From Scenedesmus sp. ARA3 (Eukaryota; Chlorophyta; Chlorophyceae; Sphaeropleales; Scenedesmaceae), in the NCBI GenBank assembly GCA_004335835.1, contig RWJK01000253.1, forward strand, positions 23,793-87,792: a stretch of 64,000 bases of DNA, given 5' to 3'. Positions within the stretch are counted from its first letter, which is position 1. Each line of letters begins with the position of its first letter. The notes under the pieces were generated by a model that worked only from the letters and a program-made list of their open reading frames with translations, did not search any database and was not told the DNA's origin. This document shows positions 1,669 through 31,626 of the stretch, one piece after another. The translations under genes were made by a program, and so were the position numbers.

Positions 1669-3151
1669 GTCAAGTTCAACGTCATCCCTAACAACGGGCA
1701 GTGGGAGACTGGTGTCCCCCCTGTTATGGGAGCTCACCTCATGGCGTCAGGAACAGTTGCACCCATCTCAACCTCGTCAGGTACTGCCAACAGCAGCAGC
1801 AGCAGCAGCAGGCAACTGCAACACAACCACCTGCCTCCCAACCTTGCAGTATTTCAGCAGCAGTATTTCAGCAGCTTATGACATCAGGTAGTACCATGCT
1901 GCAGCCGCTGCTGCTGCAGCAGCAATAGCACAAGCTGTGTTCAACAGCTTGGGTTCAACAGCTGCACCTGCACAGCACGTACAGCACAACATGAAAACTG
2001 GTGCGCCTCAACACTGCATTGCTCCTGCCCCTCATGCACCATGCAGGTGCTGGCGTTGGCGTTGAGCCGCACCAGTTCCAGTACCCTGGGGAGAGCAATG
2101 CACAGGTTGTGGTGTACGCCACAGGCAAGAACGCAGCAGCTGGCCTGGCCAAGTCTGTGACGGAGGCAGCAGCAGCAGCCATCAAGGAGAAGGGCAGCTT
2201 CACACTGGTGCTGTCAGGTGGGCGCACGGCAGGCGGCCAGCAGCAGCTGCCACAGCACTTGCACAGCAGCAACGCATGCGGGGGCTGTTACTGGAACATG
2301 TGAGAGCCATGCAGCAGCAGTTGCAGTTGGGGGAGTGGCACACATGATTTACACCACTCCAGCAACCGTGTCAGTGCAGCAACGCCTTGTCCTGTCCTGC
2401 TCTTGCTGTGGCCTTGCTGCACTTTCGTCTGTTGTAAACCTTCTGGCGCTCCGCCGCCCGCGCTGCTGTCGCCCCTCACCCAACCCCAGGCGGCTCCTTG
2501 ATCGGCATGCTGTCCAGCATCGCCGACGTGCGCGGCATCGACTTTAGCAAGTGGTGGGTCTTCTTCGTGGACGAGCGCAACGTGCCGCTCTCCAGCGCAG
2601 ACAGCAACTACAAAGGCGCACAGGAGGCGCTGCTTGGCCGCGTGGGCATCCCAGCAGACCAGGTCTTTGCCATCCAGGAAGGGCTCACTGTCAGCCAGGC
2701 AGCCACCAACTATGAGGGCAGGCTGCTGAGCCTGCCTGCTTCCGTGCTGCCCCGCACAGCAGATGGATCCATGCCGGTGTTTGACCTCATCCTGCTGGGC
2801 ATAGGGCCAGATGGTCATGTGGCATCACTCTTCCCCAATGCGCCGGAGGCAGCTGTTACTAGCGGCTGGGTGCTGCCAGTGAGCAACTCGCCCAAGCCGC
2901 CACCCGAGCGCATCACCTTCTCGCTGCCGGCTATTAATGCGGCCAAGGAGGTGGCGGTGGTGGCGGTGGGCGAGAGCAAGGCGGAGATTGTGCAGCGCGC
3001 GCTGGAGGTGCAGGCGCTGCCTGGAGCGCTGCCGGCGCAGCTGGTGCGCCCCAGCAGCGGCAAGCTGCGGTGGGTGCTGGACAGCATGTCGGCGCAGCAC
3101 CTGGCGCTGGAGGAGTGGGAGAGCGGCAAGGGCTTCCCCCGCAACAAGTGA
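1669..3151 (+). CDS. PGL: 6-phosphogluconolactonase
   Basis: Hydrolyses 6-phosphoglucono-lactone to 6-phosphogluconate, step two of the oxidative pentose phosphate pathway. Exons: 1669-1780 (coding at least from ATG 1726), 2047-2217 and 2490-3151; phases close (1,1) and give 295 residues from ATG 1726. Family marks are the phosphate-binding LSGGSLIGML split across the second intron, then WWVFFVDERNVP, then GIGPDGHVASLFPN, then the C-terminal KLRWVLD region. Length fits the single-domain DevB/SOL family. The reading frame stays open upstream of ATG 1726 to an apparent acceptor at 1668, so a longer N-terminus, perhaps a plastid transit peptide, is possible; I could not place its exon. The downstream neighbour on the opposite strand converges on it. 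Confidence 0.92.
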
Positions 3152-4158: not shown

Positions 4159-7100
4159 CTACAACAGATCGGAAGGCTGACCGTCCTTGCTGGAACCTGG
4201 CGACTCGCCGCGCCAGGCCCTGAAGGACATCACCCGTGCACCTGATGCTGCCTGCGCCTGCCAGGGGTGCTGCCGCTGCTGCTGCTGCTGTGCTGGCAAC
4301 TGCAGTTGGCTGCTCTGCTCAGCACCCAAACCCTCAACGCCGCTGTGCTGGCGCGACATTTCTAGATCAGACGGCAATGACGGCAGGTGCTCCAGCGAGA
4401 CATGCACGGCACCAGGAGTCCCTGGCTGGGAGGCTGCTGCTGCTGCTGTGTGGCCAGCAGCCACCCCTCGCTGCGCAGCCTGCCAGGCAGCAGCACTGCT
4501 TTGAACATGATGGCTGCCGCCGCCTGTGCTCTGCCACGAGCCTGGCAGCATGCGGGGGCTGCTGCCTGGCGACAGCAGCAGCCCTGTGCCGCTGCCAGCA
4601 CGGGGCCCCAGCCCTGACGCTGCTGCCGTGCTCACTGGCAGGCGTAGCACCATGGACGGTGCTCGGCCAGCAACAGCCTGACCAGGACCTGCACCTGCTG
4701 CAGCTGCAGCGACGGATGAAGAGCCAGCAGGTGCAAAAGGGTTAAATGCTGCTGCTGCTGCTGCTGCTGGTGCTGCAGCCTCGTGCTGTGCCTGTTCCTC
4801 TGCTGCAGCGTCCTCTGGCAGTGCTGCGCTGGAGAGTGCTGCCAGTGGTGCCATGCCGCCAGGTGTGCTGGGGTCCCTGGACCAGCTGCCATCCATGCTG
4901 GTGGGGTTGCTGGGGCTGAACCAGCGCTCCATGCGATGGCCAAAGTGCTCAACAGCGTTCCTGCAGCGCAGAGATATACACCGCTTGTCTGCTCAAGTCA
5001 CAACATGGTATTAGGATCTGTTGATGATCTGTGTCTGCCATGGTGGCAGGTGCTATCTGCACATTGGCCTGCATCAAGCCTGAAGCAGCGCAAGGTGTAC
5101 ATGTCCGCAGCACTTCACATGCCAAAGGATAGCCCTGTAGTGTGCAAATGATGTCAATGCAGTCACAACTGTGTGTCACGCATTGTGCTGCCCACCTGTT
5201 GGTTGCGTCATGGCCTGACAGCGGCGTTGCCACAAACTCCGGCACGCGGCCTGCCTCGCTGCGCTGCTGCAGCGGCCTAGCCCCGGGCTCTGAGGGCGAG
5301 CGCCTGCCCCTGGCCTGCGCCAGCACATGTGCAGGGGCCAAGGGGCTGCTGCTTGACGCAAGTGTTGCCTGGTAGTCTGCGCGCGTGACCCAGCTAGGCA
5401 CTCGTGGCATGCCTGCCGCATCAGCAGAGGCAGGCTGACGCAAGGCAGCACCTGCAGCAAAGGATGCTGCTTGGCCGGGATGGACTGCTGCAGCAGCGCC
5501 ACTGCCGCCGCTGCTGCTGTTGGCGGCTCCTCCAAGCCTGGACAGCCCGCTGCTGCTGCCCTGTGCTGCTCCACCTCTCTGCCAGCCATCCACTGCAGCT
5601 ACAGCGGCAGCTGCTGCTGCGCCTGCGCCGCTGTTGGAGCGCATGTCTGTGCGCGTCTTGATGCGTGCCAGCCGTGGCATACCTGGCATGCCCAAACTCA
5701 AAGGCGAGGCCGCTGCTGCTGCTGCTGCTGCAGCCCCGCTGTCTGACGAAGGCCCTGCCCCAGCCAGCAGTGGTGCTGCATCATCAACAGCAGCCAGCCC
5801 TCCCGCATCCCTTGCGCTGCCTGCTGCCACGCCATCTGCACCAGCCAGCGGCAGCTCAGCATCTGCCCTGCCAAACTCAGGGGTAATCTGGCTGGAGTCC
5901 AGCTCCTCATCAAGGCCTGCAAGCTCCGAGCCTGCCATGCTGCCACGCAGCAGGCCATCGCCCTCATCATCCGCAAACCGCATGCGCTCGTAGCCGCTGC
6001 CCGCACTCGTCAGCCGGCTGACACTGCTGGACACCGCACGTGCAATGCCGCTGCCAGCTTCGGACACGCCTCGCTGGATGCTGCCGTACACCTCTGATAG
6101 CCGCTTAGCAACCGCGCCAGCAGCCGAGGGCCGTGCTGCCTGCTCCACTCCTCCACCAAGGCTGCTGTACACGCTGCCACCTGCAGTGGTGCGTCTCTGC
6201 CCCAGCATCTGGGATAAACGGTTTTTGGTTGGGGAGGGTGGCAGCTCAGGTCCATCAGCCTCCTCAAGCATGTTGGACCTGAGGGCAGTAGCACAGGCGG
6301 CGGCAGCCACGAAAGTAGCAGCACAATCATGAGCTACGAATAGCCATGACAAGCAGCATGCAGGCGCTGGCAACGTGCTGTTTTGGTGGATGAGCTGTCC
6401 CTGCATGCACATCACTGTCGGGAACATTGAAAGCAACCCCACAGCCACAGCAGCAGACAGATCCAGTCTCGAGACTGCCTAGCAGCCAGCTCAACCGGAA
6501 GCGACATGGGAGCTGAAGACAGTTGTCGCGCAGAGGTGCTGCCTCACCTGATGGCCTTGAGCAGGTCCCCATCACCGCCCTCAGCCTCTGCCCCAGCGCC
6601 CCCGAGTGTGTAGCGGTGCCGCAAGGATGGGCGCTGCGCACACCACAACACAGCAGCGGTGGCAGCGGCAACACCGTATTGCAGTAGAGTTTTGTATCAC
6701 CTGGCTACTAACAAACCACTGCAATAGATGCCCCGGCCAGGCAGATTTTGTGCAGCCGTTGATGTCGTCGTTAAGCCACAAGCAGGCAGGCACCGGCCAA
6801 GCAGCAGCCACGTGCTTTGCATCACCCTGCCGAATGCTTATCCGCACCTTGCTCCATGCTGCAGCGTCCTCAATGCCTCCCGCATGGCTCCTGCGCCTGG
6901 GCTTGCCAGTCAGCTCCAGCTCAACATCCAGCAGGTGCTTCTTGCTGACGCTGGTGTCAGGAGGCGCTGCGGCAGCGCTGTCGATTGTTGCAGCACGCAT
7001 GGCATGCGCCAGCCGCCGCAGGGCCACGACTGGCTTTGGCACGCGGCCCAGGGCCAGCCAGCGCCACAGCACCCACACCAAGCTGCCCAGGGCAGCTGCG

Positions 7101-10100
7101 CCAGTCACAGTGCCGATGACTAGGAGGGTGAGGCCTGCAGGAAGGTAGCAAGCCGGCAGCATGTCAGGCATCCAGTTTGGACGACAGAGCAAGGATTGCT
7201 GCTGTGTGGAGTTCTGATTGTGCGGTGGCGCGGCCACAGCAATTGCGGTGTATGCAATGTGTATGGCGCTGTGTTTAGTGGAATGCATAAGCATGTTAAA
7301 CTGGCAGGCAGGCAGCATGCAGGCCGCTGGGACCAGTAGCTTTCTAGCAGCCCTAAGTTCCACTGCACCTGCAAAATTGTCATCTCCCTCGAGGGTGAGA
7401 GGGTCAAAGATGTTGCGGCCCTGCAAGCACAGAGTGCAGCCAACAGCCAGAGCAGCACACCGTTACGCACAAATTGAACATGCAGCAAGCCTCTGCCCCG
7501 CGCCTTTCCAGTGGACCAGTCTGACGCACTGCCAAAACAAGCTGCAGCTACAACACAAATTGCTGCAGCAACAGCCACAGCTCCAGTGCTGTGACGCTGC
7601 CATGAGCTGCTGACAACAACGGCTTGCTTGTCACCTTGATGTATTGCGGCACACAGCGGCCCTTGTGAGGCCAAAAGCCTGCAAGGCACTGCTCACACGC
7701 GTCCCCGCCATACCTGCAGCAAGTGCAGCACACACGTGTCGCACTTGATTGCGGCAGAGCAGCAGTCTAATGCTGGCATGGGAACAAATCTCGTCTCAAG
7801 TCATCGTAGTATTACGAGCAGACAACGCTGCACTGCCTGCAAGCTTCAGCCAGCTTGCCAGCGCTCAGCTCACCCAGTGAAGCAGTCGCAGACGCGCTGG
7901 CTGCGGATGCACCTGCCGTTGCCGCCACACTCGGCTGCCCTGTCACCCACAGGCCCCAGGGGTGCTGGGCACATGGAGAAGCTCAAGGGGCAGTCCTGCA
8001 GGTGAGGTTTAGTGCACACCACTGTTAGCTTGACAGGTTGAGCCAGCACAAGCTGGTACAGCCTGTGTATCTTCATGGGACAGCGCCTGTACAATCGATG
8101 CCATTCTCTTGTCGTGCCATCCTCTTGTCTTGCAGCTGCCGTTGCCACCCTGTGATGACTGGCAAAGGCCAGGCTTTCATGATGGTTGCCGCACCGGCCT
8201 GCAATGCTGTGTGAGCTGGCGATGCTAGTGCTGGCAAGCCGCCTCCCACCCGCCCCGCATCTCACCTGGGGACATGGAGCAGCAGCCTCTTTGATCGCCT
8301 CAGCAGCAGCATTCAGCAATGCCCGCTCCCCAACCTCGCACAGCCCGTTGCCACACACACCCAGCCGCTGCACGAGCAGCACCTCCTGCAGCTGCAGCTC
8401 TGCACTGCCGTCACCAGCCGGTGCCTGCCCTGGATCCGTTTGCAGCAGCAGCTCGGACACTAGGGCATAGCCAAGCTGCAGCACACCCATGCCTTCAGCA
8501 CCAGCATTGGTTCCAAACGAGCTGCCAGCATTGCTGGGCAACGCCACTGACACTTCTACCATAGCGGCTTGCCAACCACTTGCAAGCACTGCTGCTGCCT
8601 GCAGGCGTCTGGCACTGCTAGGTTCAGCAGCGGCTGCATTGTCTGGTGCTGTTTGCTGTCTTGCGCTGCTCTCTGAACTGCAAATACTGCTGCTAATGAA
8701 TAAGCTGTTATCCTCAGACTGCCGTGGGCAGAGGCTGCTGTGTTCTGGCGGTGCTGCTGTGCTGGGGTCAACCTCATCAACTGACAGCAAATGCCTGCTT
8801 GGCAGCAGCTGGTTTGCTGCTGCGGCTGTCAGAGCCCACTTTGCGGACACTTGCAGCACCTGCAACTGCTGCTGCATGGCTGCTGCTGCCTGCACTTGCT
8901 GGTATGCTGACTGCAGCATTGTCACCAAGCCTGCACGCCAAGTGCTCGATGCAGCTGCTCCAGGGGTGATGTCTGTGTTGTTCGGCAGCTGCATCAGCAG
9001 GCGCAGGTGCAAGCTGCAGCTGGTGCTGTCACCATCACAGACACCACACTCGTCAACGGCGCCAGACAGGCAACACGTGCCAAGCGCATCCAGCACAGAG
9101 CTGCAACAGGCCCCCTGCACAGCAGCAGCAGAAGCAGCAGCAGCGACTTTCTCAGACTGAGCAGATGCAATGCAGAGAACTCCCATTAAGCACAGCACCG
9201 CCATGGCATGAAGTTACTGCTCCGTACTGCATGAGACTGCCTCAGCACACAGGCACACAAAGTGCATGCATCGCTGCGCCACTGTCTAACGTTTCGAGCG
9301 CCCAGATGCCGCCGCCCTGCCAGCCAGCAGAACTCAATCATCATCATCATGTCCACATTTAGCCAGCAGCACTCACTGTGATGTCCACCGTCCAGCTGCT
9401 GCCGCCACACTTGCCGCACTTGTCCACCCGCCCCGCTGCACACCAGGCTCCCCAGCTGTCAAGCACAGCCCCATCATCGCAGCAGGCGCCTTGCACATCC
9501 AGCACGCCGCTGGCACAGCACTTATCTGACTTTGTCATGACGCCAGCACAGCTGTCGGGCACCTCGCAGAACTGCCCATGCCAGCCAGCCTCACATTGGC
9601 AGCCGTTCATGGTGCAGCTGCCGTGGCCAGCGCAGTCCTGTGCTGCAAACGCTGTGTCGGCTACAAAGCCGGGCCTGCAGATTGCCGACTGTGAGAGCTG
9701 CAAGCAGGTGACTGACTTTGCGGGCGGCGCTGACTTGCAGCGTGACTCATCTACTGGGGATGTGCTGGTGCCATGGCTGCTGACGCAGTGGACGGACCTG
9801 CTGGCATGGCCAAAGCTGGCATCGCCACCACAAGTGCTCCAAGCAGACACCTGGTACAGCAGCAGTGGTGCATTGCAATAAAGGCACATCCCAGAGTTTG
9901 CCGCTCACAGCGTAACAGTGTACCATGCACAGGAAACAGCGGCTGCTGGCTGAGGCATTGGAAGGTAGCCATGGCAGGTAGGGCGGTGATAACAACCCAG
10001 CAAGAGTGTTGTATGTCATTGCCGCAGCGGGCAGCACCCCACCTTCCAGGTGTGCAGGAGGCACGGCCGGCTGGCGCACTCTGCTGTCAGCAGCTCGCTT

Positions 10101-10151
10101 GGCACACCACCCAGGCTCTTGATGCACTGCTGCTCTGACACAGCGTCCCCT

Positions 10152-10187
<36 letters not shown>

Positions 10188-13100
10188 CAAGCAAATCATA
10201 TGTGCTCAGCTACAGGCGTGACGGCATAATGGAAATGCATATAATAACTGATGCTGTGGCAGCACACCATGGCAGCGCACAGTGCGCACCCACCTGTGAC
10301 GCTGACGCACGTAGCTGACCTCCTCTTGTAGCCACCACCACATGACGTGCTGCAAGGAGACCACCCGCCCAGCTGCCAGCGCACCCCGTCACTGCACTTG
10401 TCGCGTGCCTGACATACATTGGACAAACCGCCCTGCATCACCACAGTGGCCAGTGATGCGTTGCGTGGCACTTTGCCAGCTGGCTGCAAGGCCCGCACGC
10501 CGCTACCTAAGCTAGCACTGCTGAATGGGGGCAGTGAGCTGGCACTGCTGCTCCACTGGATGCTTGTCCAGTCTGTGCTGCTGCTGCAGGACTCGCAGCA
10601 TTGGGCCAGAGGTTGCACTTGCCTGCATGCATGGTTAACAAGGGTGCAGCCGCCTGAGTGCTTTGGAGTGCTACCACAGCAATGCCAGGCATTTGGAGGA
10701 CAGTGGTTTTGTCTTTAGCAAGAGGCGTGTTGCCGCCTGATTCCACAGAGCCTGGACAGCCAGTAATGCAACAGGCCATTGATAGTACAGGAGTTGGCGT
10801 TGTGTGACCCGCAGCCAACAACGCCTCTGACTGCAGGCTGCATGCAGATGGCAGCAGCTGGCTCACCCCAGGGAGTTGATGCACACGAGCTGGCCGCCAT
10901 CTGCCTCCGAGCCAAGCACCGTGCAGCCCCTGCCGCAGCTGCTGTGCTCGCTGGCCAGCACATGCAGGGCTTGCGTGGGGCAGGCCGCAGTGTTGCACTG
11001 CCTCGAGCCAACAGGCACCTCCTCGGCTGCAACGCAGTGAAGCATGGCGCCAGTGAAAGTTTGAAATCAGTAGCAGCAGCAGCAGTCACACGGCTTTCAG
11101 AGACACAGGCAGTGCCTGCAGCTACCTGTATCATCAACTGAAGCTTACACCATTTGAGTTTACACCGTCTGAGTTTACAGCCATGGCTGGGCAAGGTGCA
11201 GATCTGGTGGTACTCTATAAAGACAGACCACACCTCGCTGCACATCTCCACGCCACTCACCCAGTGGGCACTCCTCCAGCGGCACCTGTGCAGGCGGGGA
11301 GCCGCGGCCGCCCACCCGCATGCAGCGCACCTCCCGGCTGGCCCAGCCGCCGCCACACCTGGCTGAGCAGTTGCTCCAGGGCCCCACCTGCAGCACAGCA
11401 GGCGGGGTCGCCACAGGAGGCAGCACACAACACAGGATGGGCACTCAAAGACTCCCGCATGCACTACAGGAGGTGGCGCAACAGAACGCGCTTCTGTACG
11501 TGCAAGCAGATATGCATGCACCAGCTGCAGCACCATGTAGTGCATGCCTGCATGGTGCTGCAAGCTTGCATGCCTGCACACGCTACCCCTTTTCTTTATC
11601 TACGCTCAGAATTGTCAGCCAGATGCACAGCCACCCAGCACACCCCCTCACCAGCAGGTAGTAGGCGTTGCTGTTGAGCCTGATGGGTGTGCTTGCAACT
11701 GACGGAACTGCTCCCTGCCTGTCAATGCTGCCAGGCGGCACCTCTGCTGCAGCTGGCAGTGGCCAGCCTGCCACCAGGAAGCGGCCGCAGCTGCTGTCCT
11801 GCACGCAGGTCGATTCCTTTGCCAGGCTGAGGCGAGGCAGCGCGTAGTTGTATGCCCTGGCAGAGGTGACGCTGATGCCACTGCTGCTGGCTGCACTGCC
11901 AAGCCTACGGAGAGCAGCACGGGGGAGTGGTGGCCAGGAACAACAGACAACAACTGCGGTGAGCATCTTGCAGCAGCTACCCAGGCAAACCCAACACACA
12001 CAGTACAGCGGATAGCATATGCATCGTTCAGGCTTGCAGCTTGCGCCTTCTGTTACCTGAGTGCTCTAAAGGTTGACTCTGTGGGGGGCCGTGCACTGCT
12101 GCAGTAGCTCGCGTACTGGCTGCTTGGCACGCACCACACGTTGTCCAGCAGCCAGCTGCCCTGGCTGTTCACCCACAACCCTGCAAGCAGGTGCACATGT
12201 AGAAAACTTAATCCAGGTTATGCACTGAACATCACAGCCAAGCTCAGCGAGTGCAACTGCTGTTTGTGCTGCATCCTGCTTGCACTGCCCGCTACTGCTC
12301 TCCTACCTAGCCTGTCTTTGTCTCGGACGATGGCCAGATGGTTGTGTCCAGCTGACAGCCTGACCATTTGCTCCCTGCTGTTGGCTGCGCCGTCACCCCA
12401 CTGCACCAGCAGGGTGGCAGCTGCCTGTGACACTCTGAGGTGCACTGTGGGCCAGCCCAGAGCAGCAGCGCCACTCAGCGCAGTGCCGTCACCAGCATAC
12501 ACCTTCAGCAGCTGCGTGAGTCTGGTGCTGCTGTCACTGGGCGCCTCTAAGGCTGATGCAGGCACGTCAAGGTTGAGGGACAGCGACCACTGCTTGCTGC
12601 ACGTGCTGTCAGGTATCACATTGGCACCAAACACCTGCAGTGCAGCGCACAGGCGAGCAAAGCAGCATTGACTTGTACACATTAAAACACGACAGTATCA
12701 TGTCTGTATACTATTGCCACAATTGCATTAAAGCGAGTGACATGTTGTTGCTTTGCGCTTAGGCTGCGATGCTGTGATGTCGAATATGGAATGCTGCAAC
12801 GCTGTCAAAGCTGTTGCTCCTAGCAGTAATGGGTCCCACCTGCTGGGCCAGGGCATCCAGTGTTGCAGGCTGGGACAGCAGCTGCTGGCCCTGTGATGAT
12901 GTGGTGCGCTGAGGCGGCTGCCGCACCACAGGGATGCTGTGCAGCTCCCTGGCCTGCAGTATGCTGCGCTTGAGGTAGTAGGAGTAGGTGGCAGTCATCT
13001 GCAGCGCGCTGAGCGACGCGCTGCTGAAGGACATGTCGATCTGCGTCTGAGCACCATCAGCTGCCAGAATCTTCACCTGCACCAGACAACAAACCAGCTG

Positions 13101-16100
13101 TACAGTCAGAAGTTGCCGTCTGCGCCACAAGTTGGAGTGGGGATGCCTTCGCAGGAGCATGACAGCCCCAGCATCTCACGCAGCACACATGACCAGACCA
13201 TTGCCCAATACCATGACCAAGCAACTGCATTATATCATGCCCCTGCTGCTCCCACAGCTCACATGGTAGCTCCAGTCACAGCCTGAGTTGCACTGCTCCG
13301 TGTTGACCACGGATGCCTCCATCAGGGGAGCCAGGGGAGGCAGCTGCACTGCCGTGGTGTCCAGCGCAACGGTCCTGTTCAGGTTGTCCCTCCACACGAT
13401 GATGATGACCTCAACGCCATCTGGCAGCACCAGCTGGAGACTGGGGGTAACAGGGAAGCCACACTGCAGTGCAGGGCGACAGCAGGGAAACTCGCCCGTT
13501 TCACACCTGCTGTTTCCAGCCTTACGTTGGATGTTTGGCACTCAAGAGATTCCGCCTTGTGAGCACTTGAGCTGCAACAGGCTTGTTGCATGAGCTGTGT
13601 TTACTGTGTGTAGCAGTGTGTTGGACGTTCAGCTGCCTCCCATGCCCTGTAAGCAACGCAGCAGCATGCCCGGCGGGGCAATCAGCCATGCAGCAGCACT
13701 GCTGCACGGCATGCACATCTCACCTGGTCCCCGCCCAGCACCAGGCGCTGCTGCTCGTCCAGGCCCTGCAGCTGCACGCGCGCGTCCAGCGTGCCTGGCG
13801 ATGCCATGACGCCCGTCACCACGCGCAGCTGCAAGCACTTGATGCCCGCGGCGTAGCCCGAATAATCGGCGCGCCTGCTGGCCTCCTCGCCGGGGTTCTC
13901 GCCTCGGAAGCCGTAGAAGTTGGGCACGCTGTAGCTGTACACTGGCACCTGCCGGCAGAATGCCCGCAGCATACAGTAGAGAGTGTGAAAGTGTGCATTA
14001 TCACTACGGAGCTCAGCAACAGCAACATGCTCAGCAAGACTGAGGTGCCGCAACAGCACCTCTGCACCAACAGCACTTGGCCTTGCTTTCCCACGTGCTC
14101 CAGCAAGACACACGCATGAGGAGCCGCGGCTCACCAGGGGCTGCTCTGCACACTGCGCGATCCTCTCCACCGCCAGCAGCAGGTTGTGCTCCTCATCCAG
14201 GAAGGCATCTCCCTCACGCAGCAGCGTGAACACAGCACCAGGTGGGTTGGGCGGGTAGGCCCCGGGTGTGGGCGGCAGCGCGTCAGGGAAGCGCGCAAAA
14301 GCCATGTTGAAGTCCAGCAGGCCCCTGATGCTCCATGCCATGTTGCCTGGTGACAGCGGGCACATGGACACGCAGCTCATGGAGAGGAAGCAGCACGCAA
14401 GCATGCTGTTTGGCCACGCAGCAACAATTAAGCTGCTTGTATGTTCGTGCATGTGCTGTGGTGCCCAATCATAGCACATCTGACACAAGAGAAGCAGGGC
14501 CCCACGCAGCAAGCTGCTATGGATGTTGCAATCCCCTTTTTTGTAAACAGCACGGTGTGCTGGCACATTACAAGACAACCATGACCTCTGCTGCAGTCCT
14601 TGGCAACCGTAACTGCTTGTGCGGCTGAGGCAGCTCTGCCTACAGCCCACCTGGTGCGTCCAGGTAGCGCTTGCTGTACTCTACTGACAGGCCCTGCACG
14701 TTGCTGCGCATGTGCTCCGGCGCCAGCGGGCGCTCCTCTGAGTAGGGGTTGCTGGCGTTGGCCTTGATGCGCACGTCCTGCCAGAAGGGTGTGGACCTGA
14801 ACAGCATGCAGCCAGAGCAGCAGCATGGCGTTGCTCTCAATGCTAGCCAAGCACTGCCAGTAGCCTATGGACAACCAACAGCATTTGCATGGCTCACACG
14901 ATCAGCATTTTCCTTCGAGTACCTGACCATCCACAATGCAATTATCGCGTCTATGCTCTGCAGTTAGTATCGTTGCAATCTATGCCAGGGCTCAATTAAG
15001 CCCTGCGCACCTGAAGCCCAGCACCAGCACCTTGCCATCCTCCAGCCGCAGGCTCGCGCCCTTCAGCTGCCCCTTGGACTCAGGCCTGTCAAACGGCCAC
15101 AAGCTGTAGCGCCGCACACGCGGCGTGGCAGCAGCTCCATTGGCTGGTTGTGCCGCAGGTGTGAGGTCGGCCAGTGACAGTGTGACTCGTTCACGAGCCG
15201 GCACCCAGCCGCTGAGAATGCGGTTGTGCAGGCTGTAGTCGCCCTTGCAGCAGGCCATCATGTCCAGGCGGTCGGAGTAGGTGTCCTCCATCACGCCAGG
15301 ACCCAGCGGGGAGGTGGGCGGCTGCAGCGCGACAGCGCCCGGGCCAGCCAGAATGTGATGTGATTCATCATAACATTATCATTATGATGCAACAGCAGGC
15401 AGACACGGGTGTTGGGCGCATAAATGTGATTGGTACCTGGAGGAGGTGGTGCCACTGCAGCAGTGGTAGTGCAGCACATACCTGTGTGGTGCGTTCAAGC
15501 TTTTTGCAGGTGTGCAAGCAGCTGCCTGAAGAACAGGGGATTGCTGATGCATGCGAGCTGCTGCACTTGCTACACGCACCTTGGCATCAGCGCTGTCGTT
15601 TAACCTGTAGACAGTGGCGTGTGCCATGCCGACGCGGTGGCCAAACTCATGCACCTGCACAGCAGCGGCTGCATTGCTCAAACAAGAGTAGACACCATGT
15701 GAGGTTGCCAGCACTGCTGGCAATTGGGCTTGCATGACAGACTGCTGCGCACCAATAAAAAAGCATGGCTGAGCACCACAGCAGCAGCTGCAAAAGCTGG
15801 TGGCAGCTGTCGCGCTGGATGTGCGCGGCGGCGTACCAGGTAGTAGTGCTGGGGGTTGCAGCGCATCACAAACATCAGCGGCGAGCCGCCTGCATTCGCC
15901 CATGCCGTGAACCCAGTGTTGATGAACCGCGGTAGGGGTGACAGCACCTGCAGTCAGCATGTGCGCAACTTGATCCTTACAGAGCAGTGTATGTGGGCAC
16001 AGGACTATCCTGTTTTCTGTCGCAATTGGCCTCTCTTTCAGAGAAAGGTGTGGCCCCAACAAGCAATCAAAACAGAGCAAGAGGATCCTATGCCAGGTGC

Positions 16101-19100
16101 GCATGTCTGTCACCACGCCTGGTGTCATTGCAGCAGCATCTCATAATTCACAGGATGAGCAACAACTGCGCACTCACCAGCACAGTATGGAAGTCACTCG
16201 ACATATCGTAGCCCTGCGCCTGCACGTGCCCGCTGACAGGTGTTTCGCTGTACGCAAAAGCATTCTGGCCGGCTGCTGCGCCTTGTGGCATGTACAGCGT
16301 TGGCAGCACCACAGGGTCTGGCAGCAGCGACAGCCTGCCATACGAATTCTCAATGACAGCTTCCGCCCATCTATCGTACGTGCCGGTGTGTGTCACCAGC
16401 TGCTGCACTCCCTCAGGCGTGCATGTGAATGAGCAGCTGGCAGCGCCAGTGGCAGGGTTCACCTGGATGCAGCACAAAATGAAGCAGCAGCAACGCAATG
16501 TCAGTACATGCATCAGACTGCTTTGTTGCTTCATTGCATCAGCTTGGGCTAGCTCAGCCCAGCTGCGAGATGCAGTAAACCCAGCGCACTCCAGGGCAAC
16601 AAAAAGTGCAGCTGCTCTGCTGCCGAGCCGCCTCACCCTGCCATACGGGGTTGATGCCACCCAGCTGGACCAGTGTGTGACACATGAGGGCAGCGGGCCC
16701 CAGCCAGCAGCAGTAGTCGCCCAGCTGAAGCCCTCAGGCACAACTGCTACCCTCTTGTTCCTGCCCTGGTTGGTGGCAGCCCCAATGCCATTGCCACTGG
16801 CTGTGCCCCATGCTTGCGGTGAGCCTGGGCCAGCCAGGTACTTGTCGGCACAGGTGAAGCGCCGCCAAGGACCTGCGACAACAACAGCAAATCAGCAGTA
16901 ATGGCCACTAAATTGAGGCGCGGCTGCGGCTGCCCATACATCTGCTGCTGCTGCTGCTGCCGGAGTTGGTGCACAGTGGCCCGCCATGGGTTCTTGCAGG
17001 TTGCAACAGCTCCTGGATGCACGAAATCCCACTACAAGCCGCTACAGTGGCAACAGCCTGAAACACTGAACATGCTGCTGCTGCTGTTGTGGCGGCAGAG
17101 CCGGTGATGGCGGCGCACCTGTGTCCACTGGCGCCAGCAGGCCGTAGTCAAACAGTCGCTCGGCCTCCAGGTCCTCGGGGCCCTGCAGGTAGTCCCAGTC
17201 CCAGCCGGCAGCCATGGCGCTCACGTTGAGCCAGGCAGGCCGGAAGCGCTTTGGATCTATGGGCCGCCCCAGCTGCAGGGCCACAATGTTGGCAGTCGTC
17301 CTGCAGCAAGCGACAGGCAGCACCCATTGCTGGGTTTTAACCTCCAGGAAGTCCACTGCTGCAGTGATGCTGTGGTGTGTTGCCGTCCGTGATGCAATGC
17401 GTCTGCCATTCCACACCCAGTGAGCCACGCCTGTTGCGCAGTGCCCACCTGCAACAGGGTGCCCTGGCCTGTGTGTCTCCCGCCTTGCGCACCAGCAGCT
17501 CAAAGTCCCGGGTGGACCAGCCAGACATCATGTCGCTCGCCTGCGCACGCACAATGTACCTGCCGCACCAAGGAGAGCACACCAGGGCATATGTAATATC
17601 CAAGTCAGCAGTGTTGCACTCAGCAAACCGCTGCTTGTGCTGCTTGCCAGAGAGTGCCCGCTGCCAGCAGACAAGGCGAATCTGTTTGGTTGGAGTCTCT
17701 GTTGAGGTCAGTCTGCTCAAGATGCGAGCAACTCACCTGCCTGCTCTGCTGTACTGTACTGTTGCTGCGCCTTGCACAGTCCCTCCAACAGCCTGGAACT
17801 CTGACACAACATCACCGCAGTTGCTCTGCTTGCAGCTGCTGGGAAAACAAAGTGCAGCAGATGCAGGGCAGCAGGGCACACAAAAGGTGATCAGCACAGT
17901 CGAACACCGCTGCTACTGCTGCACACACCATAGACATGGCTCCTATTGCTGTTGGCACAACTTGTGGCATACATGGCATGGACTGGACCTGGCCTTACAT
18001 TGGGTTTGCACCAAAGAAGGTGAGGCGTAGCTTCAACCCCAGAGCTGTGGTGTTGCTGCTGCCTGCGATTGCGTTCACTGCTACCCTGACTGGCACATCC
18101 ACCACCAGGCCAGCGAGAGCAGTGCTGGGGTCAAGCGTTATAGCTGGCGGACTGGGTACAATTGCCATTGCCGTCAGAGTAGCATCCAGGCTTGTGTTCC
18201 CACTGTCTGCTGCAAGTCTGTCCATGGCCACCGCATTGGGAAGCATCCAAATGCTGTGCACGCTGAAAGGCATGCCTGCCCCTGCTCTATTGCCAAGAGC
18301 AAAACTGCTGAGCCCCAGCGCACCATCCGCAGCAGCTGACAGGCGCACCCAGCCCTCACCAACGATATCAAAGCCAGCAACCTGCAGTGTGCCAGCATTG
18401 CCAGATGTGCTTGAAGGAAACGTGGTGTTACAGTGCTCTGTTGCTACACATACCAACAGCTGAATCATAACCTGGCTCGGCAGCAGGTGAAGCAATACAC
18501 TTCAAGCACATGCGGCCAGTACATTTTGAGTCTAGCTGTACAGCTGTGGCATGGTGGTGCAGCTCACACTGGATGGTGTTGGGCAGGTTGTATTGAGGCA
18601 CAGGCGGAGTCTGCTGCTGTCGCCTGCCACAGCCACTGACACCAGAAAGCTGGCAGCACTGTTGCCGCCTAACAAGCCTGCTACTGTGTACTGTGCATAG
18701 TTTCCATTTGAACGAGATATGAGCAACCATCCTGCAAGAAGTTAAGTAAAGGGACAGGAGGGAGGATTGTGCTGCAGTGTGCTTTTGCTTTGGGTACCAG
18801 AGATAGTGCCGCTGTGATCAGCTGCTGCATAGCTCAGTCTACATGTGACAATACAGCGTGTGATACTAGGTGTGCATACCTGCTGGCCTGTTGACTGTCA
18901 CCGCAAAGCCACCGAGAGTGAACAAGAGCGTATCTGCCTGTGCCTGTGAGGCCTGTGCTTGCAGTCCTACTGCCACTGTGTAGTTGATTGCCAAGGTAGG
19001 CAATGCCAAGCTGTCCAAGACAAGCTGGTAAAGTTCTTCATTGCTGCAGTCAGCTGCTGGATTGGTGCCATCTTTGACAAAGTGCCCTGTGCTGGGCAGA

Positions 19101-19231
19101 TACTGTGCTGCTGCTGTTTGCCATGTGGCAGCTGCTGCTGTGGCAGAGACAACCTGACTGTGCACGCCCTTCGCCAAAGCGCTCACAAACACAATTGTGA
19201 GAGCATAGTACACAAGTGCAGAATACGCCAT
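4159..19231 (-). CDS. Giant membrane-anchored M11 metalloprotease with TSP1, EGF-like and Cys-rich modules
   Basis: Predicted 2,904-residue type I protein. Exons 5'->3': 19231-18880, 18731-18568, 18459-17999, 17838-17737, 17559-17449, 17300-17119, 16872-16637, 16462-16178, 15947-15837, 15654-15580, 15321-15011, 14796-14651, 14346-14135, 13948-13724, 13463-13263, 13076-12840, 12634-12307, 12180-12057, 11904-11652, 11387-11261, 11026-10867, 10622-10294, 10149-10043, 9850-9377, 9156-8266, 7995-7874, 7713-7635, 7420-7369, 7134-6848, 6633-6548, 6278-5196, 4960-4159. All 31 junction phases agree. Residues: 1-25 signal peptide; an Ig/PKD-like stretch around 310-370; ~670-680 HEFGHRVGMAH, the metzincin zinc site of gametolysin-type M11 peptidases, followed by CCKGDYSLHN and GWVP; TSP1 repeats at ~1373-1440 and ~1553-1610, and a degenerate one at ~1611-1665; EGF-like modules at ~1680-1705 and ~2085-2130; paired-Cys DxCGxCxG motifs between; membrane span ~2154-2176; Ser/Ala-rich cytoplasmic tail to the TAG. 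Likely role (inference): cleavage of cell-wall or matrix glycoproteins at the surface. Confidence 0.85.
10152..10187. repeat. (GCA)12 microsatellite at a 3' splice site
   Basis: Twelve perfect GCA units. On the minus, coding strand they read CTG and directly form the pyrimidine-containing tract before the acceptor of protease exon 23 (exon starts at 10149). Confidence 0.9.
11142..11181. repeat. Short imperfect tandem repeat in an intron
   Basis: Copies of a TTACACC...TGAGT unit of about 16 bases, the last one partial, lie in the intron between protease exons 20 and 21. No function is apparent. Confidence 0.6.
15580..15654 (-). other. Zinc-binding catalytic exon of the M11 peptidase
   Basis: A 75-base exon in phase 0 at both ends carries HEFGHRVGMAH. 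All three zinc-ligand histidines, the catalytic Glu and the metzincin Gly are present, so the peptidase is expected to be active. It is not a QExxH variant of the kind known in some volvocine paralogues. Confidence 0.85.
19154..19231 (-). other. Signal peptide of the giant protease
   Basis: ATG at 19229-19231 begins MAYSALVYYALTIVFVSALA, a hydrophobic core followed by a polar stretch with a plausible cleavage site near VHS-Q. This makes the large N-terminal part extracellular or lumenal and supports the chosen start. Confidence 0.75.
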
Positions 19232-20810: not shown

Positions 20811-23800
20811 TCACTGCAGGGTCGGGCTGGACACAGCTGCGCCTGCAGGGCTGCCTTCTGCTGCGCCCAGCGCTGTCACATCAGGCGCACCCATGTCACC
20901 AGAGTTCACGCCAAAGCTGTGCCCTGACAGCATGGCCCCGCTGCCCTGCTGCTGCCCAAACAGCATGTCCCACAGGTCGTCCTTGTTCATCTCATCTGTC
21001 ATCATCAGGTCGGTGCTGTTCATGGTGCCCAGGTTTGACAGGATGTCATTCATCCCCATGTCCAGGTCACCCTCCGGGCTGTCCACCTTGGGCTGCTGCT
21101 GCACACCCAGGTGCATGCCAGCGCCAGCTGCTGCTGCTGCTGCCGCTGCAGCAGCAGTCGGCGACTCCACTTTCACCTCCAGCGGGCTCAGCACCTGCAC
21201 GCCGCCAGCTGCTGCTGCTGCTGCAGCTGCGCTAGCAGCGTGCATTGTGGTAGTGGTGGCGCCGCCTGGCGTGATGACAGTGGTGGCGCCAGCCGCCATG
21301 GGCACCCGCTGCTGCGAGGGCACGCGCTGCATGCTGCCGCCTGCCCCAGGCGTGGCCATACACGGCACCTCAGTGATGGTGGTGGTCTGCCTGTAATCCC
21401 TGCCAGGGTCAGCAGGCACAGCTGCTGCTGCTGCAGCTGCCGGGTCCAGCTGCTGCTGCTGCTGTTGCTGTACCTGCTGCTGCTGCAGCGGGTCGCCATA
21501 CAGCAGCATGTTTGGCAGGCCTGCTGCTACAGCTGCTGCTACCGCCGGATCTGCTACCAGGCCGTCGTACGCTGCTGCTGCTGCAATGTCTGCTGCTGCG
21601 CTGAAGTCTGCCGCCTCTGCTGCTGACATGCCTGGGTGGGTGATGCCGTCCAGCCCTGCAGCAACAATGCAATGGCAGGCAAAGAAGGCACATGCATCAG
21701 CTGTCAGCAACAAAACAGTCCCAACTACCTCTTGCACTGCTCGACCACCAGCACACCAATGGCGGCACATGACAAGCAATAGGAGCGGCCCTGTGGGAGC
21801 CATTACTGCCACCCAACGGCGGCCAGGCAGCTGTGGTGACTTACCCACAGACGGGATGCCACCGCCAAAAGATGTGTTGGGCTGCTCGTGGATCAGCACA
21901 GAGGGCTCAGCAGCACCGCCACCCTGCAGCACACAGCACAATGCAGCGGCGGTGAGACCATGAGAACGGGCTGGAAAGCAGGCTAGCCTTTCACCTCAAC
22001 GTGCTGCAAAGAGACACAAGAAAGGGGCGCATGAAATCTAGCAAAGAGTTGCTGATGCATACGTTGCAACGTTGTGTCCTGTGAAATTAGCACGATTACA
22101 GCAAAAAAGCACAACAACAACATGTATTCCCATTGTTGTAGCAAGCTGATGCTCCATTTGCGACCTCATGCGCGTCCCGCAATCAACCGACCGTCAGGCT
22201 GGTCGTCACCTGGTGTTGCAGTTGTTGTAGGCGGCCAGAGGGGCCAGCTGCTGCTGCTGCTGCTGCTGCTGCTGCAGGGTCTATGTGGCTGGAAGCCAGG
22301 AGTGCTGCTGCTGCCTCAATGTCTGCTAGGCCTTGCGACGTGGTGCGAGCAAACACTACAGGATAGGCACGAGCGCGCAAAAGCAGCCACACAACACCCA
22401 GGGATGCGCGCGCCACGCAGCAGTTGCAGAGCATACACATGATTAGCAGCGAGGATGTACATGACACTACACGGCAGATTGCTGCTGCAGGCGCTACATG
22501 CAGGCATACCTGACCCAACTGCATGCTGTGAAAGGCAGCCTCAAAGTCAGCCGGCACATCGCCGCCAGGCATGCTCTGCACAAGGCTGCGCAGGAAGGCG
22601 TCAGGGAATTCACCCGCGTTGACGGGCTGGTACTGGATGATCTGGGCGTGGTTCTGCTCCGGCGGCACCGCGCCCGACTCGTCAGACTCGTCGCCGCTGC
22701 GCCCGCGCCGCTTCTTGCGCCCTGCAGGCACGCACAGGAGACGGATGAAGCCTCACATGAGCAAAATGTCCTACTTCCACCGGCCAACAGTAGGTATGCA
22801 TGGCGGATGCTTGGCTGAGCTGCCACACAGAACGCAACAGTACCACCTTCTCTACCTCAGCAACAGCTGCAAAACGCAGGCCACAAATACACACTGCGCC
22901 GCAACTAGTCTGCAAGCCCTTCCGCTGCTGCTGGCTCACCTCCGCGTTGGCTGCTGAGCCGCTGCAGGCCTGCGCTCTGCGCCACCGACACCATCTGCTG
23001 CAGCACAGTCGGGTTCTGCGCCACGCGCGCCAGGAAGTTCACGATGGTGTTCTGCCGCTGCTCCTGGCTCTCCAGCCGCTCGTGCATGTCCCGCATGCGC
23101 TGGTCTGCAGCCTGCAGCACCCACAGCAGCCAAACCATGGCACACAGGTCTTCAGACATGTGCGCAGACAGCACCCATCACAAGTCTGTGCCAGGGTGTT
23201 GCTGACAGGTTGCTGCCAGGTCAGCCGGCTTGCCGCCCTTGCCTGCAACGCCCTCAGATTGAGCAGCCGCTGAGGATAGCTCTCTGCCTGCTGCTGCTGC
23301 CGCGGTGCGCACCTGCTGCTGCTGCCTCAGCCGCACGAGCTCCAGCATCAGCACGTTCTTGTCGCGCTTCAGCGACTCAATCTCATCGTGCACGCCACCA
23401 TAGTGCCCCAGCTGCAGCAGCAGAGCAGCAACAGCAGCAGCAATCAGCATCAGCTCTCTGAGCAGCCTTCTAGCAGGCGCTGTGCTGCTGAGCGTAGTTT
23501 TCAACTACAATGAGTCAGGTGTGCAGAGCATGAGCACAACAAGCAATATACACAAGGCTGCGGCAATTCACTGGCGCTGCAGCTGCGGCTATGATGTGGT
23601 TGGTATCGGCAGGGCTCACCTCGATGGCTGTCTGGCCTGCTGGTGCGAGCGCCTGCTGCTGCCCTGCCTGCTGCGTAGGCTTGCGCCTGTAAATGTCCTT
23701 CAGCAGGTCCCGCCGGCCCCTGATGAAGTTGTCATTCGCAAACTCCCAGCGATCTGGGTCTACTTTGCGGAAGCCCTGCAGGAGGGAAGCACAGCATGCA

Positions 23801-24619
23801 AGTAACAGAACTAAATACCGATCATCAGCAGCAAGCAGCAAACACTGCCAGGGTGTGCTGGCTGTTCGCGGCCATTACTGCAATCTGAAGCCTTTATTCA
23901 CACCTCGTATGCAGGCTGAGCTGCTGATGGGACGTTTTGATGGCTGCTGTGCATGCAAACAACTGCTGCTGCCGCTGCTGCCAAGTGCCATCAGCAACCG
24001 CTGGCATCCGCTAGCCAAGGACAAAGTGTTCGGCGCAGGCTGGTTCCTGACCAACTGCAGCACTGCGCAACACGGCGCTGCCAATAGCTGATGTGATTGC
24101 AGCTGTTCAGTGCTTGCAAGCCTCTAAGTGCATTCCAGGTGACAGCTGCTGTTGCTGGTGGCTCACATAGGTGTTCAACTGCCGCACAAAGCTTGAGAAG
24201 TTGTTGTGCTTGAAGTGCCGCGGCAGCAGGTCTCTGCTGAACTCAGGAGGCTTCCATACAACGAAGCTGCAGGGCAGAGGGATGCACACGTCAGCCAACT
24301 ATCTGCATGACGCACAGGGAGCAACAGGCGCAACACCAACATGCGCTGGTGCAGCTACTTGTGGCCTTGCATGGACGTACCTGCGGCCGTCTGGAGACCA
24401 GGACACTATGGCATCTGTGCTGACATCGTCAACAAGGTCATACCTGCGCGGGTCACACAGGGCGGGCGTCAGTGAGTAGGTGCTGCTGCTGCTGTTGAGT
24501 ACAGCATCGCACGCGGGCAGCTGGCAAGCTGCATGCACTCACGTTTTCGTGAGAAAAGGAGGTGGCTGGTTTGCGCTGCTGCTGCTCTCGCTGCCAGACC
24601 CTCGTCGAGCTCCAGTCAT
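20811..24619 (-). CDS. HSF1: Heat shock transcription factor (class A type)
   Basis: Activates heat-shock genes by binding nGAAn repeats as a trimer in the nucleus. Exons 5'->3': 24619-24543, 24443-24381, 24266-24167, 23775-23620, 23411-23313, 23111-22940, 22721-~22515, 22331-22210, 21923-21845, 21655-20811; about 639 residues. The DNA-binding domain is spread over the first four exons: [14 protein letters not shown], then [20 protein letters not shown], then [20 protein letters not shown] and [16 protein letters not shown] heptads follow ([20 protein letters not shown] and [20 protein letters not shown]). The basic GRKKRRGR is the likely nuclear signal. The C-terminus is Ala/Gln-rich, with acidic hydrophobic patches ([16 protein letters not shown]) typical of class A activation (AHA-like) motifs. 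An in-frame TAG upstream supports the ATG at 24619. The exon 7 donor is the weak point: frame needs GTCAGG rather than the better GTATGC five bases on. Confidence 0.93.
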
Positions 24620-30200: not shown

Positions 30201-31248
30201 TGGCCAGCTCAACCTGTGCTGCCGCTGCCTGTGCTGTCTGCTGTGCGTCCTCAGCCCTGCAGGCCAGCTGCTGCACCAGCTGCTGCTGCTGCTGCAGCTG
30301 CCCCAGCACCAGCACCAGCTGCTGCTTCAGGGACCCCAATTGAATGGCAGCGCCATCTGACTGAGCCAGCTGTGTGTATTGCTGCTCCAGCTGGCCGACG
30401 GTTGCTTTCAAGACAGCATTTTGGTCCTTGAGCGCGCCAATTAAGCAGGCTTGCTGTGTGCTGCTCAGCGCTGCTGCTGCCGCCCTGCGTGGTGACAGCT
30501 GCCGCTCACGGTGCGTATTCTGGCTGCTGCTGTCGCCTGCTGCTGTGCTGCTGTAGCATTCCTGTTCAGCCGCAAACTGTATTTGTACGCCATGTGGCTG
30601 CTGCCGTTCCTGCAAGAGGCCCTCAGCTGCCAGCAGTGCCTGCCTGCAGCGCCTGAGCTCAACCTCCTTGTGGCGTGCAGCTGTCAGGGCAAGCTTCTGC
30701 AAGACATATGCATGGAACAGCAGCACTAGGTGCCCATCAGCGCGTTGCTTTCCAGACTGCAACTTGCAGTTTCGCCTTAGCGCAGCGTGTATGAAGAACT
30801 AGGGCCCTTTTTTTGCTACTGCTGCGTACCGCTTGCAGGCACAGCAGTGCAAGCAGCAAGCAGGTGCTTGAGCGACGTTCGACACACGGAGGCAAGGCTA
30901 AGATGCATGAGAGGCTGCTGGAACTCACCAGCTGCTCCTGCAGCTCGTTGTTGTGCTCCTGCTGTGCAAGCAGCTGCTGAGCCAGAGTCTCAGGCTGCCG
31001 AAATGCCAGCAGTGAAGCTACATGGTGTCCACGGTGCTGCAATGGCCTGCTGCTGCCTTTTGCGGCAGCCAGGCCTGAGTTATCAGTGGAGCAGTTGCCT
31101 GCATTGGGCACGAGGTAAGCGGCACAGGCTCAGGTGTTTGTACTGGTGCATGCATGGGCATGTCACTGCATGTGAGACACCAGCCCAGCAAGACCATGCC
31201 CCAGAGGGTACACTCACCAACCAGGTAGTCCGCAGTGCGTCTAGACAT
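27212..31248 (-). CDS. Long coiled-coil protein of unknown function
   Basis: Exons 5'->3': 31248-31218, 31017-30929, 30696-30141, 29948-28396, 27992-27801, 27430-27212; all phases close, giving 879 residues. The short N-terminus (MSRRTADYLV, then ASLLAFRQPETLAQQLL) is a compact helical pair that might be a degenerate LisH-like dimerisation motif. Residues ~45-220 and ~440-690 are Gln/Leu/Ala/Glu heptad-rich coiled coil. Between them is a Ser/Pro/Arg-rich linker of ~200 residues (SAGRCSSPSRPGRPDS). A further short coiled segment (EQLEEQLVENTEAVEECMAA) precedes the tail. The composition fits a centrosomal, basal-body or cytoskeletal scaffold, but I recognise no family. The high Gln content comes partly from CAG codon runs. 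Confidence 0.75.
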
Positions 31249-31626
31249 TGATGTCTGTGACGTCTACACTTGATACATGAGTAGGGCACAAGACAGATGA
31301 TGCAGGTAGATGCCTGTTTTCCCGCGAAGTCCCTGTACAGTCCGTTTGTTCGCGAGCGTAGCAGGCAGAAATAGGTAAGTGAAGAATAAACATTCGACGG
31401 GACCCAAGCTACACCAAGAAAACAGAAAACAGGCTGGCAGTGCCAGGCACGAAGCACAAAGCAGGTAAACACCACAATGCCTGAACCTGGGTCTCTGCAC
31501 CCGCAGCACAGCAGCAGTGCTGAGCCCTGTGTGCCGATGTAAGATCAGGAAGCCAAGACTATTGATAAACCCGAGTCCTGAAACTGACACGCTTCACTCA
31601 CATGGCTATGCAGTGAAAGCGACTTG
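31249..31626. other. Intergenic: 5' region of the coiled-coil gene, 3'UTR of the J-protein gene
   Basis: 378 bases between two minus-strand genes. No ORF with support and no clear minus-strand TGTAA was found. Confidence 0.4.

What the first reader, a model, noticed from the sequence alone, without database searches (positions are those of the whole stretch)
4159..19231. A 32-exon, ~2,900-residue membrane-anchored algal metalloprotease with an ADAMTS-like module set
Seen directly: signal peptide, HEFGHRVGMAH zinc site, TSP1 repeats (WSPCSTSCGGG and WSNCSARCGGG types), EGF-like modules, DxCGxCxG Cys-rich motifs and a single membrane span, in an exon chain whose 31 junction phases all agree. 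Known: gametolysins (M11) are secreted wall-lysing proteases of about 600 residues in volvocine algae, while a metzincin followed by TSP1 repeats and a DxCGVCGGDxxSC-type motif is the hallmark of animal ADAMTS proteases. Inference: a parallel assembly of a matrix-modifying, surface-tethered protease, perhaps acting in wall remodelling, daughter-cell release or adhesion.
Basis: partly seen in the sequence, partly recalled or inferred. Interest (0 to 1): 0.78.

Follow-up and report, generated by a model that had tools for sequence, protein, structure and literature searches.

The report
Green-algal membrane-anchored modular zinc protease
One large green-algal gene appears to encode a cell-surface zinc protease tethered to the membrane by animal-style thrombospondin, EGF and cysteine-rich modules; a relative in another green alga has the same design, but it is neither a demonstrated gametolysin nor a true ADAMTS.

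Summary
It has a signal-like N-terminus, HEFGHRVGMAH, three TSP1_ADAMTS stretches, EGF modules, two DxCGxCxG motifs, a membrane span and a cysteine-free 729-residue tail. Homologous proteins align across 28 of 31 splice junctions. A Chlamydomonas eustigma protein has the same order in one 2,803-residue chain.

The labels need correcting. No Pfam M11 hit appears in the window protein or six relatives scanned. Resemblance to this genome's M11 fragments comes mostly from the zinc motif. ADAMTS is not met beyond TSP1. The catalytic domain looks like a separate metzincin-type family; only Chlorella's triplicated copy just passes M10 and Reprolysin_3 cut-offs.

Beyond the finding: Chlorella has the protease and span without TSP1. 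Parts of the TSP1-EGF-CysR-span portion occur in other green algae without a detected protease, and in one unnamed metagenomic protein with a subtilase, suggesting a shared chassis. Public T. obliquus annotation splits the locus, probably wrongly. No locus-spanning transcript was available; activity and substrate are inferred.

The parts
4159..19231 (-). Whole coding locus, 32 exons, 2,889 aa
   Evidence: Own gene model; homologue alignment across junctions
19157..19231 (-). Signal-peptide-like N-terminus (residues 1-25)
   Evidence: Hydrophobic segment MAYSALVYYALTIVFVSALA; no signal-peptide program run
17449..17835 (-). PKD-like segment before the protease (exons 4-5)
   Evidence: Homologous Chlorella segment matches Pfam PKD, E 3.8e-7; window protein itself has no PKD hit
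15011..16462 (-). Metzincin-type catalytic region (exons 8-11)
   Evidence: Conserved in relatives
15619..15651 (-). Zinc site HEFGHRVGMAH (residues 669-679)
   Evidence: HExGHxxGxxH in 9 of 10 homologous domains that span the region; P0011 lacks the stretch; P0007 and P0008 are truncated and do not reach it
15235..15264 (-). Met-turn candidate DMMACCKGDY (residues 712-721)
   Evidence: Motif present 33-35 residues after the third His in 9 of 9 domains with the zinc site
11652..12634 (-). Conserved region (exons 17-19), LamG-like by eye only
   Evidence: 34% identity to C. eustigma over 213 of 235 aligned residues; no Pfam hit
10867..11387 (-). TSP1 repeat 1 and following Cys region (exons 20-21)
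   Evidence: PF19030 best stretch
10043..10372 (-). TSP1 repeat 2 (exons 22-23)
   Evidence: Three PF19030 stretches in all; WSPCSTSCGGG at residues 1554-1564
9680..9850 (-). TSP1 repeat 3 (start of exon 24)
   Evidence: Three PF19030 stretches in all; WSTCGGD at residues 1616-1622
9563..9634 (-). EGF module 1
   Evidence: PF23106 EGF_Teneurin E 4.3e-6
9010..9550 (-). CC / DxCGxCxG repeats across the exon 24-25 junction (intron 9115-9376)
   Evidence: Continuous in C. eustigma P0003 and in P0011; two DxCG motifs
7635..8355 (-). GVCGNGLCEVGE...CPQDC and EGF-laminin-like stalk (exons 25-27)
   Evidence: 50% identity to C. eustigma over 104 residues; EGF_laminin E 0.004, below cut-off
7067..7132 (-). 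Transmembrane span (residues 2139-2160)
   Evidence: Top hydropathy windows; position in final model
4159..7066 (-). Presumed cytoplasmic tail, 729 aa, Ala/Ser/Gly-rich, no cysteine
9202..9204 (-). In-frame ATG followed by signal-peptide-like residues: candidate start of a separate gene (rival reading)
   Evidence: ORF list

Best explanation
The locus is one gene for a type I membrane protein that enters the secretory pathway. It displays a zinc metalloprotease of metzincin type on the cell surface, followed by TSP1, EGF and disulfide-rich modules that probably hold it to wall or matrix glycoproteins, and is anchored by one span with a long cytosolic tail. The catalytic domain belongs to a family found here in green algae and unnamed sources and, on present evidence, not shown to be M11. 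It most likely cuts extracellular wall or matrix proteins close to the plasma membrane, as in wall remodelling or daughter-cell release. Shown: exon chain supported by homology, modules, conserved zinc and Met residues, same order in C. eustigma. Inferred: single transcript, membrane topology in vivo, activity, substrate, biological role.
For: Gene model and homologue alignment at 28 of 31 junctions. C. eustigma P0003 carries the same order in one 2,803-aa protein (its span seen by eye) and Scenedesmus sp. P0001 most of it. HExGHxxGxxH in 9 of 10 homologous domains spanning the region, with D-x-M-[AG]-C-C 33-35 residues on in 9 of 9. TSP1_ADAMTS and EGF hits. 85 cysteines before the span and 0 in 729 tail residues. 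Only this locus of the genome matched the protease (counts there are lower bounds). P0002 and P0005 keep a hydrophobic span after the protease without TSP1 modules (spans by eye). Secreted M11 and S8 proteases are the cell-wall-digesting enzymes described for Chlamydomonas (PMC8643629, passages read).
Against: No transcript spans the locus. The public T. obliquus annotation has two models here (P0004, P0009). No curated protease family matches the window protein above cut-off, only weak zinc-site matches. The structure prediction of the protease region failed (mean pLDDT 32.6). P0011 lacks the zinc stretch, perhaps a missing exon in that model. Other hydrophobic windows score 1.59-1.73 against 1.98 for the span. 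The window span aligned with no C. eustigma residues in the multiple alignment, although C. eustigma has its own hydrophobic segment nearby by eye. The N-terminal 355 residues are only 18% identical to C. eustigma.
Confidence: 0.66

Rival explanations
1. Two adjacent genes: a secreted protease-TSP1 protein ending in intron 24 (stop just after 9377) and a separate membrane protein starting in or before exon 25 (for example at ATG 9204).
For: Public T. obliquus models OEZ86_011660 (P0004, 1,233 aa, ends by reading into intron 24) and OEZ86_011661 (P0009, 821 aa); ATG 9204 is followed by signal-peptide-like residues.
Against: C. eustigma P0003 and P0011 run through the junction with matching CC repeats. 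P0009 starts at an internal Met of exon 25, not at ATG 9204; P0004 starts inside exon 3 and lacks exon 8, so these models look incomplete.
Confidence: 0.12
2. A gametolysin (M11) with extra modules, too diverged for the Pfam profile.
For: HExGHxxGxxH, then a Y-x-D...M...GW spacing resembling the own-genome M11 fragments by eye; hhalign probability 83%, score 45.0, reached by 1 of 60 tail-shuffled controls.
Against: No M11 hit in the window protein or six relatives with the threshold at E 10 (HMMER's filters drop most matches above about 0.1). Shuffled controls averaged 40.9, so most of the score is the zinc motif; the tail alone scored 16.9 against shuffles averaging 14.3 with at least five of 60 above 19. 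Only two partial M11 sequences were used, so the test is weak.
Confidence: 0.25
3. A surface adhesin or receptor whose protease domain is not catalytic.
For: Parts of the TSP1-EGF-CysR-span portion exist with no protease detected: TSP1-bearing in Trebouxia (P0010, P0019) and Coccomyxa (P0016), EGF/CysR/stalk without TSP1 hits in P0017 and P0020 (Tetraselmis by my reading of truncated labels). Long cytosolic tail.
Against: The catalytic Glu and zinc ligands are kept in 9 of 10 homologous domains spanning the site, including proteins made of little but this domain (P0005, P0006).
Confidence: 0.15
4. A true ADAMTS homologue, by descent or transfer from animals.
For: TSP1_ADAMTS matches and a DECGVCDGDSTSC motif. 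The Chlorella protein passes the Reprolysin_3 cut-off (23.6 against 22.4 bits, summed over three copies, no stretch passing alone).
Confidence: 0.03

Closest known systems
Unnamed Chlamydomonas eustigma protein CEUSTIGMA_g12491 (P0003)
   Same: Order: N-terminal hydrophobic segment, protease with HExGHxxGxxH, three TSP1 stretches, EGF, two DxCGxCxG motifs, stalk, span (by eye), tail
   Different: 34% identity over 2,281 aligned residues; N-terminus, spacer and tail little conserved
Scenedesmus sp. NREL 46B-D3 protein (P0001)
   Same: Ortholog; 76% identity over 2,299 aligned residues
   Different: Public model carries an upstream HSF domain and lacks some exons; one TSP1 stretch found
Chlorella vulgaris protein (P0002)
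   Same: Three copies of the protease core, each with zinc site and (by eye) a span
   Different: No TSP1 or EGF hits and no DxCGxCxG motif
Gametolysin, family M11 (PF05548)
   Same: Zinc motif class; algal, extracellular setting
   Different: No profile match; far larger, membrane-anchored, TSP1/EGF modules
Animal ADAMTS proteases
   Same: Zinc motif class followed by TSP1 repeats and a DxCGxCxG motif (ADAMTS layout recalled)
   Different: No disintegrin-like, ADAMTS cysteine-rich or spacer hit; membrane-anchored; no reprolysin match above cut-off
Subtilase-TSP1-EGF-CysR protein from an unnamed metagenome (P0012)
   Same: Same C-terminal plan: TSP1, EGF, DxCGxCxG, GVCGNGLCEVGE, EGF, span by eye
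   Different: Peptidase S8 in place of the metzincin

Membership tests
Peptidase M11 (gametolysin) | Match to PF05548 above curated cut-off | tested here: not met
   No hit in window protein or P0001, P0002, P0003, P0005, P0006, P0007; the same model hits two other loci of this genome
Peptidase M11 (gametolysin) | Similarity to M11 beyond the zinc motif | tested here: inconclusive
   Score 45.0; 1 of 60 tail-shuffled controls reached it, mean 40.9; tail alone unexceptional; only two partial M11 sequences
Metzincins | HExxHxxGxxH and a downstream Met-turn methionine (definition recalled) | tested here: met
   Both in 9 of 9 domains with the zinc site; a tenth (P0011) lacks the zinc stretch
Metzincins | Metzincin fold | tested here: inconclusive
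   Predicted model unusable, mean pLDDT 32.6
ADAMTS | Reprolysin (M12B) catalytic domain | tested here: not met
   Window fragment: Reprolysin_2 E 0.17, below cut-off; C. eustigma fragment: Reprolysin_3 E 0.037, below cut-off. Against this: Chlorella's three copies together pass the Reprolysin_3 cut-off, 23.6 against 22.4 bits, at the zinc site
ADAMTS | Disintegrin-like, ADAMTS cysteine-rich and spacer domains | tested here: not met
   None among the seven Pfam families listed with the threshold at E 10
ADAMTS | ADAMTS-type TSP1 repeats | tested here: met
   PF19030 E 6.3e-20, three stretches
Type I membrane surface protein | Signal peptide, one span, extracellular disulfide-rich part | tested here: inconclusive
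   Hydropathy and cysteine distribution agree, with weaker rival hydrophobic windows; no dedicated predictor or localisation data

The most novel reading that the evidence does not exclude
Green algae built their own class of membrane-tethered matrix proteases from parts also used by animals: a common surface chassis (TSP1 repeats, EGF, CC/DxCGxCxG repeats, a low-confidence SEA/ferredoxin-like spacer, GVCGNGxCEVGE-EGF stalk, span, tail) onto which different catalytic ectodomains were plugged, here a previously undescribed metzincin family, elsewhere a subtilase, echoing the two protease classes known to open Chlamydomonas walls.
Probability: 0.38. Interest if true: 0.72.

Novelty: new variant of a known kind. 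Interest (0 to 1): 0.58.

Why it matters
In Chlamydomonas the cell-wall-digesting proteases described are gametolysin and sporangin (PMC8643629, passages). A conserved, membrane-anchored, multi-module protease would put wall cutting under local control at the plasma membrane and join it to a cytosolic tail. It would be an independent parallel to animal matrix-bound proteases, and would add a zinc-protease family that the profile libraries searched here do not name. T. obliquus and Chlorella are cultivated algae whose tough walls are a practical obstacle (recalled).

Tried and rejected
Rejected: M11 assignment as a tested fact. Rejected: ADAMTS membership. Disfavoured: two-gene reading. The first gene model had spurious tiny exons and was replaced; a first hand edit of exon 24 was off by two bases and broke the frame, mended; exons 18 and 22 were later lengthened from homologues.

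Led nowhere: scans for relatives of the protease in prokaryote contigs (191 pattern matches, none confirmed) and viral contigs (50, none confirmed); solved-structure searches with the protease (none; one irrelevant match at E 0.4); a solved-structure search with the window's TSP1-EGF-CysR part found only weak Reelin matches; NCBIfam on three relatives (none); structure of P0005 with 8 sequences (unusable). The chassis model from P0014 reached mean pLDDT 51.7; its TSP1 part matches solved TSP1 structures, while a low-confidence beta-alpha-beta-beta-alpha spacer had only chance-level matches. A LamG-like reading of exons 17-19 is by eye only.

Literature: searches (0 papers; 29, 28 listed; 6; 36, 20 listed; 0; 1); listings and abstract starts seen. 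None listed appeared, from title and abstract start, to describe a TSP1-bearing algal metalloprotease. PMC8643629 was read in passages only. The library holds open-licence papers only, so this absence is weak.

Full report
WHAT IS THERE. The window lies in an 87.3-Mb, 1,567-contig genome. Its products are nearly identical to Tetradesmus obliquus proteins (P0009, 97%; P0004, 85% over the protease region with an exon missing, 98% over the short TSP1-EGF part), so it is T. obliquus or a very close strain (inference). Four exons were then adjusted: 3 and 24 by eye, and 18 and 22 because homologues carry the extra residues. The final CDS is 8,670 nt, 2,889 aa, with 31 introns of 108-304 bp; GT-AG borders and in-phase junctions were requirements of the model.

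IS IT MORE THAN CHANCE. I therefore tested junctions against homologous proteins. A junction counted as supported if at least 13 of 16 surrounding residues aligned, with at most three gap columns and at least two identities on each side. Supported: 22 of 31 by C. eustigma, one Chlorella copy, P0011, P0005 and Helicosporidium together; 28 of 31 adding the Scenedesmus protein, P0007 (which itself supported none) and P0008; 29 of 31 adding the two T. obliquus models; junctions 2 and 18 remain without support. Singly: Scenedesmus 23, C. eustigma 16, Chlorella 9, P0011 9, P0005 6, P0008 5, Helicosporidium 3, P0004 14, P0009 7. Most of these are predicted proteins; P0008 is labelled as an ORF of a GHUV record, which I take to be an assembled transcript.

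ONE GENE OR TWO. The public T. obliquus models split the locus: P0004 ends by reading into intron 24 and P0009 begins at an internal methionine of exon 25. C. eustigma P0003 and P0011 run straight through this junction with the CC repeats in register. I therefore keep one gene, but have no transcript across it. ATG 9204, followed by signal-peptide-like residues, is the main reason for remaining doubt. The Scenedesmus model errs the other way and carries an upstream HSF domain.

THE MODULES. Pfam on the joined protein (before the last two exon corrections) gave TSP1_ADAMTS E 6.3e-20 in three stretches, EGF_Teneurin 4.3e-6, and EGF_2 and EGF_laminin below their cut-offs. There are two DxCGxCxG motifs. 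The highest hydropathy windows are the span at residues 2139-2160 (1.98) and the N-terminus (1.81); lesser ones near residues 286, 134 and 995 (1.73, 1.64, 1.59) mean that hydropathy alone does not prove a single span. All 85 cysteines precede the span and none is in the 729-residue tail, which fits an oxidised outside and a cytosolic tail. Identity to C. eustigma is 44-47% around the protease, 34% in exons 17-19, 41% in TSP1/CysR and 50% in the stalk, but 18% in the N-terminal 355 residues, 15% in the spacer and 20% in the tail.

THE PROTEASE. HExGHxxGxxH is present in 9 of 10 homologous domains that span the region (window, P0001, P0002 three times, P0003, P0004, P0005, P0006); P0011 lacks that stretch, and P0007 and P0008 are truncated outside it. 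D-x-M-[AG]-C-C-x-[GS]-D-Y follows 33-35 residues after the third His in all 9. This is the metzincin signature as I know it (recalled). It is not shown to be M11: PF05548 finds two other loci of this genome but neither the window protein nor six scanned relatives. Profile alignment to two own-genome M11 fragments scored 45.0 (probability 83%); 60 versions with the tail shuffled averaged 40.9 and one reached 45.2. The tail alone scored 16.9, with shuffles averaging 14.3 and the top five from 19.1 to 23.7. So most of the signal is the zinc motif; a weak remainder cannot be excluded. The three Chlorella copies together reach Peptidase_M10 at 24.7 bits (cut-off 24) and Reprolysin_3 at 23.6 (cut-off 22.4), both at the zinc site. 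Predicted structure was unusable.

WHERE IT OCCURS. Two searches with the protease against about 5.8 billion protein sequences (each scored only about 8,000 candidates) found it in Scenedesmus, Tetradesmus, C. eustigma, Chlorella vulgaris (three copies in one model), Helicosporidium and three entries without an organism name; P0011, found with the C-terminal part, is another. No prokaryotic or viral relative was confirmed. Only this locus matched in its own genome (counts are lower bounds).

THE CHASSIS. Searching with the C-terminal part (13 proteins) found related plans. TSP1 hits occur in P0010 and P0019 (Trebouxia), P0016 (Coccomyxa), P0011, P0012 and P0014; P0013 (Volvox reticuliferus, partial), P0015, P0017, P0018 and P0020 have EGF-type hits but no TSP1 hit at E 0.01. 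None of P0010-P0020 has the zinc motif, and the only protease domain hit among them is Peptidase_S8 (E 1.1e-33) in P0012, an unnamed metagenomic 2,200-aa protein with several TSP1 repeats. This genome holds a second such locus on contig C938; no match to the protease or subtilase of my protein set was found in 20 kb there. M11 and S8 are the two wall-digesting protease classes described for Chlamydomonas (PMC8643629, passages). A chassis shared by a metzincin and a subtilase is therefore suggestive, but the subtilase example is one unnamed cluster.

FUNCTION. Best reading: a surface-tethered zinc protease that trims wall or matrix proteins next to the plasma membrane. Architecture is well supported; catalysis is likely from residue conservation; topology, substrate and timing are inferred. 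The alternative that it is an adhesin or receptor is weakened by the conserved active site.

Noticed in passing
window 21843-24445 (-) and 27335-34615 (-): Stretches matching the N-terminal 838 residues of the Scenedesmus NREL 46B-D3 model P0001, which holds an HSF DNA-binding domain: an upstream HSF-type gene and probably a further gene, in the same order.
   Followed up: partly
window about 1995-3151 (+): ORF pieces look like a 6-phosphogluconolactonase gene converging on this locus (recognised from memory, no search run; ORFs).
   Followed up: no
L021 2500-7261 (contig C938): Second chassis locus in the same genome: TSP1-like, CC/DxCGxCxG, EGF-like and hydrophobic segments; no match to my proteases within 20 kb.
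   Followed up: partly
L022, L023 (contigs C1021, C1000): Other TSP1 modules of this genome sit in very Ser-Pro-rich reading frames reminiscent of hydroxyproline-rich wall proteins.
   Followed up: partly
[quoted passage not shown]
   Followed up: partly
P0002, Chlorella vulgaris: One public gene model holds three near-identical protease copies, each followed by a hydrophobic segment; may be a tandem array fused by annotation.
   Followed up: no
P0006, Helicosporidium: The protease domain persists in a parasitic, non-photosynthetic relative of Chlorella (lifestyle recalled).
   Followed up: no
spacer of chassis proteins, window exon 25: A basic RRLL/RRLQ/RHLL motif recurs in the poorly conserved spacer; possible processing site (seen by eye).
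   Followed up: no
window 10150-10188: Run of CAG/CTG triplets at the end of the intron before exon 23.
   Followed up: no
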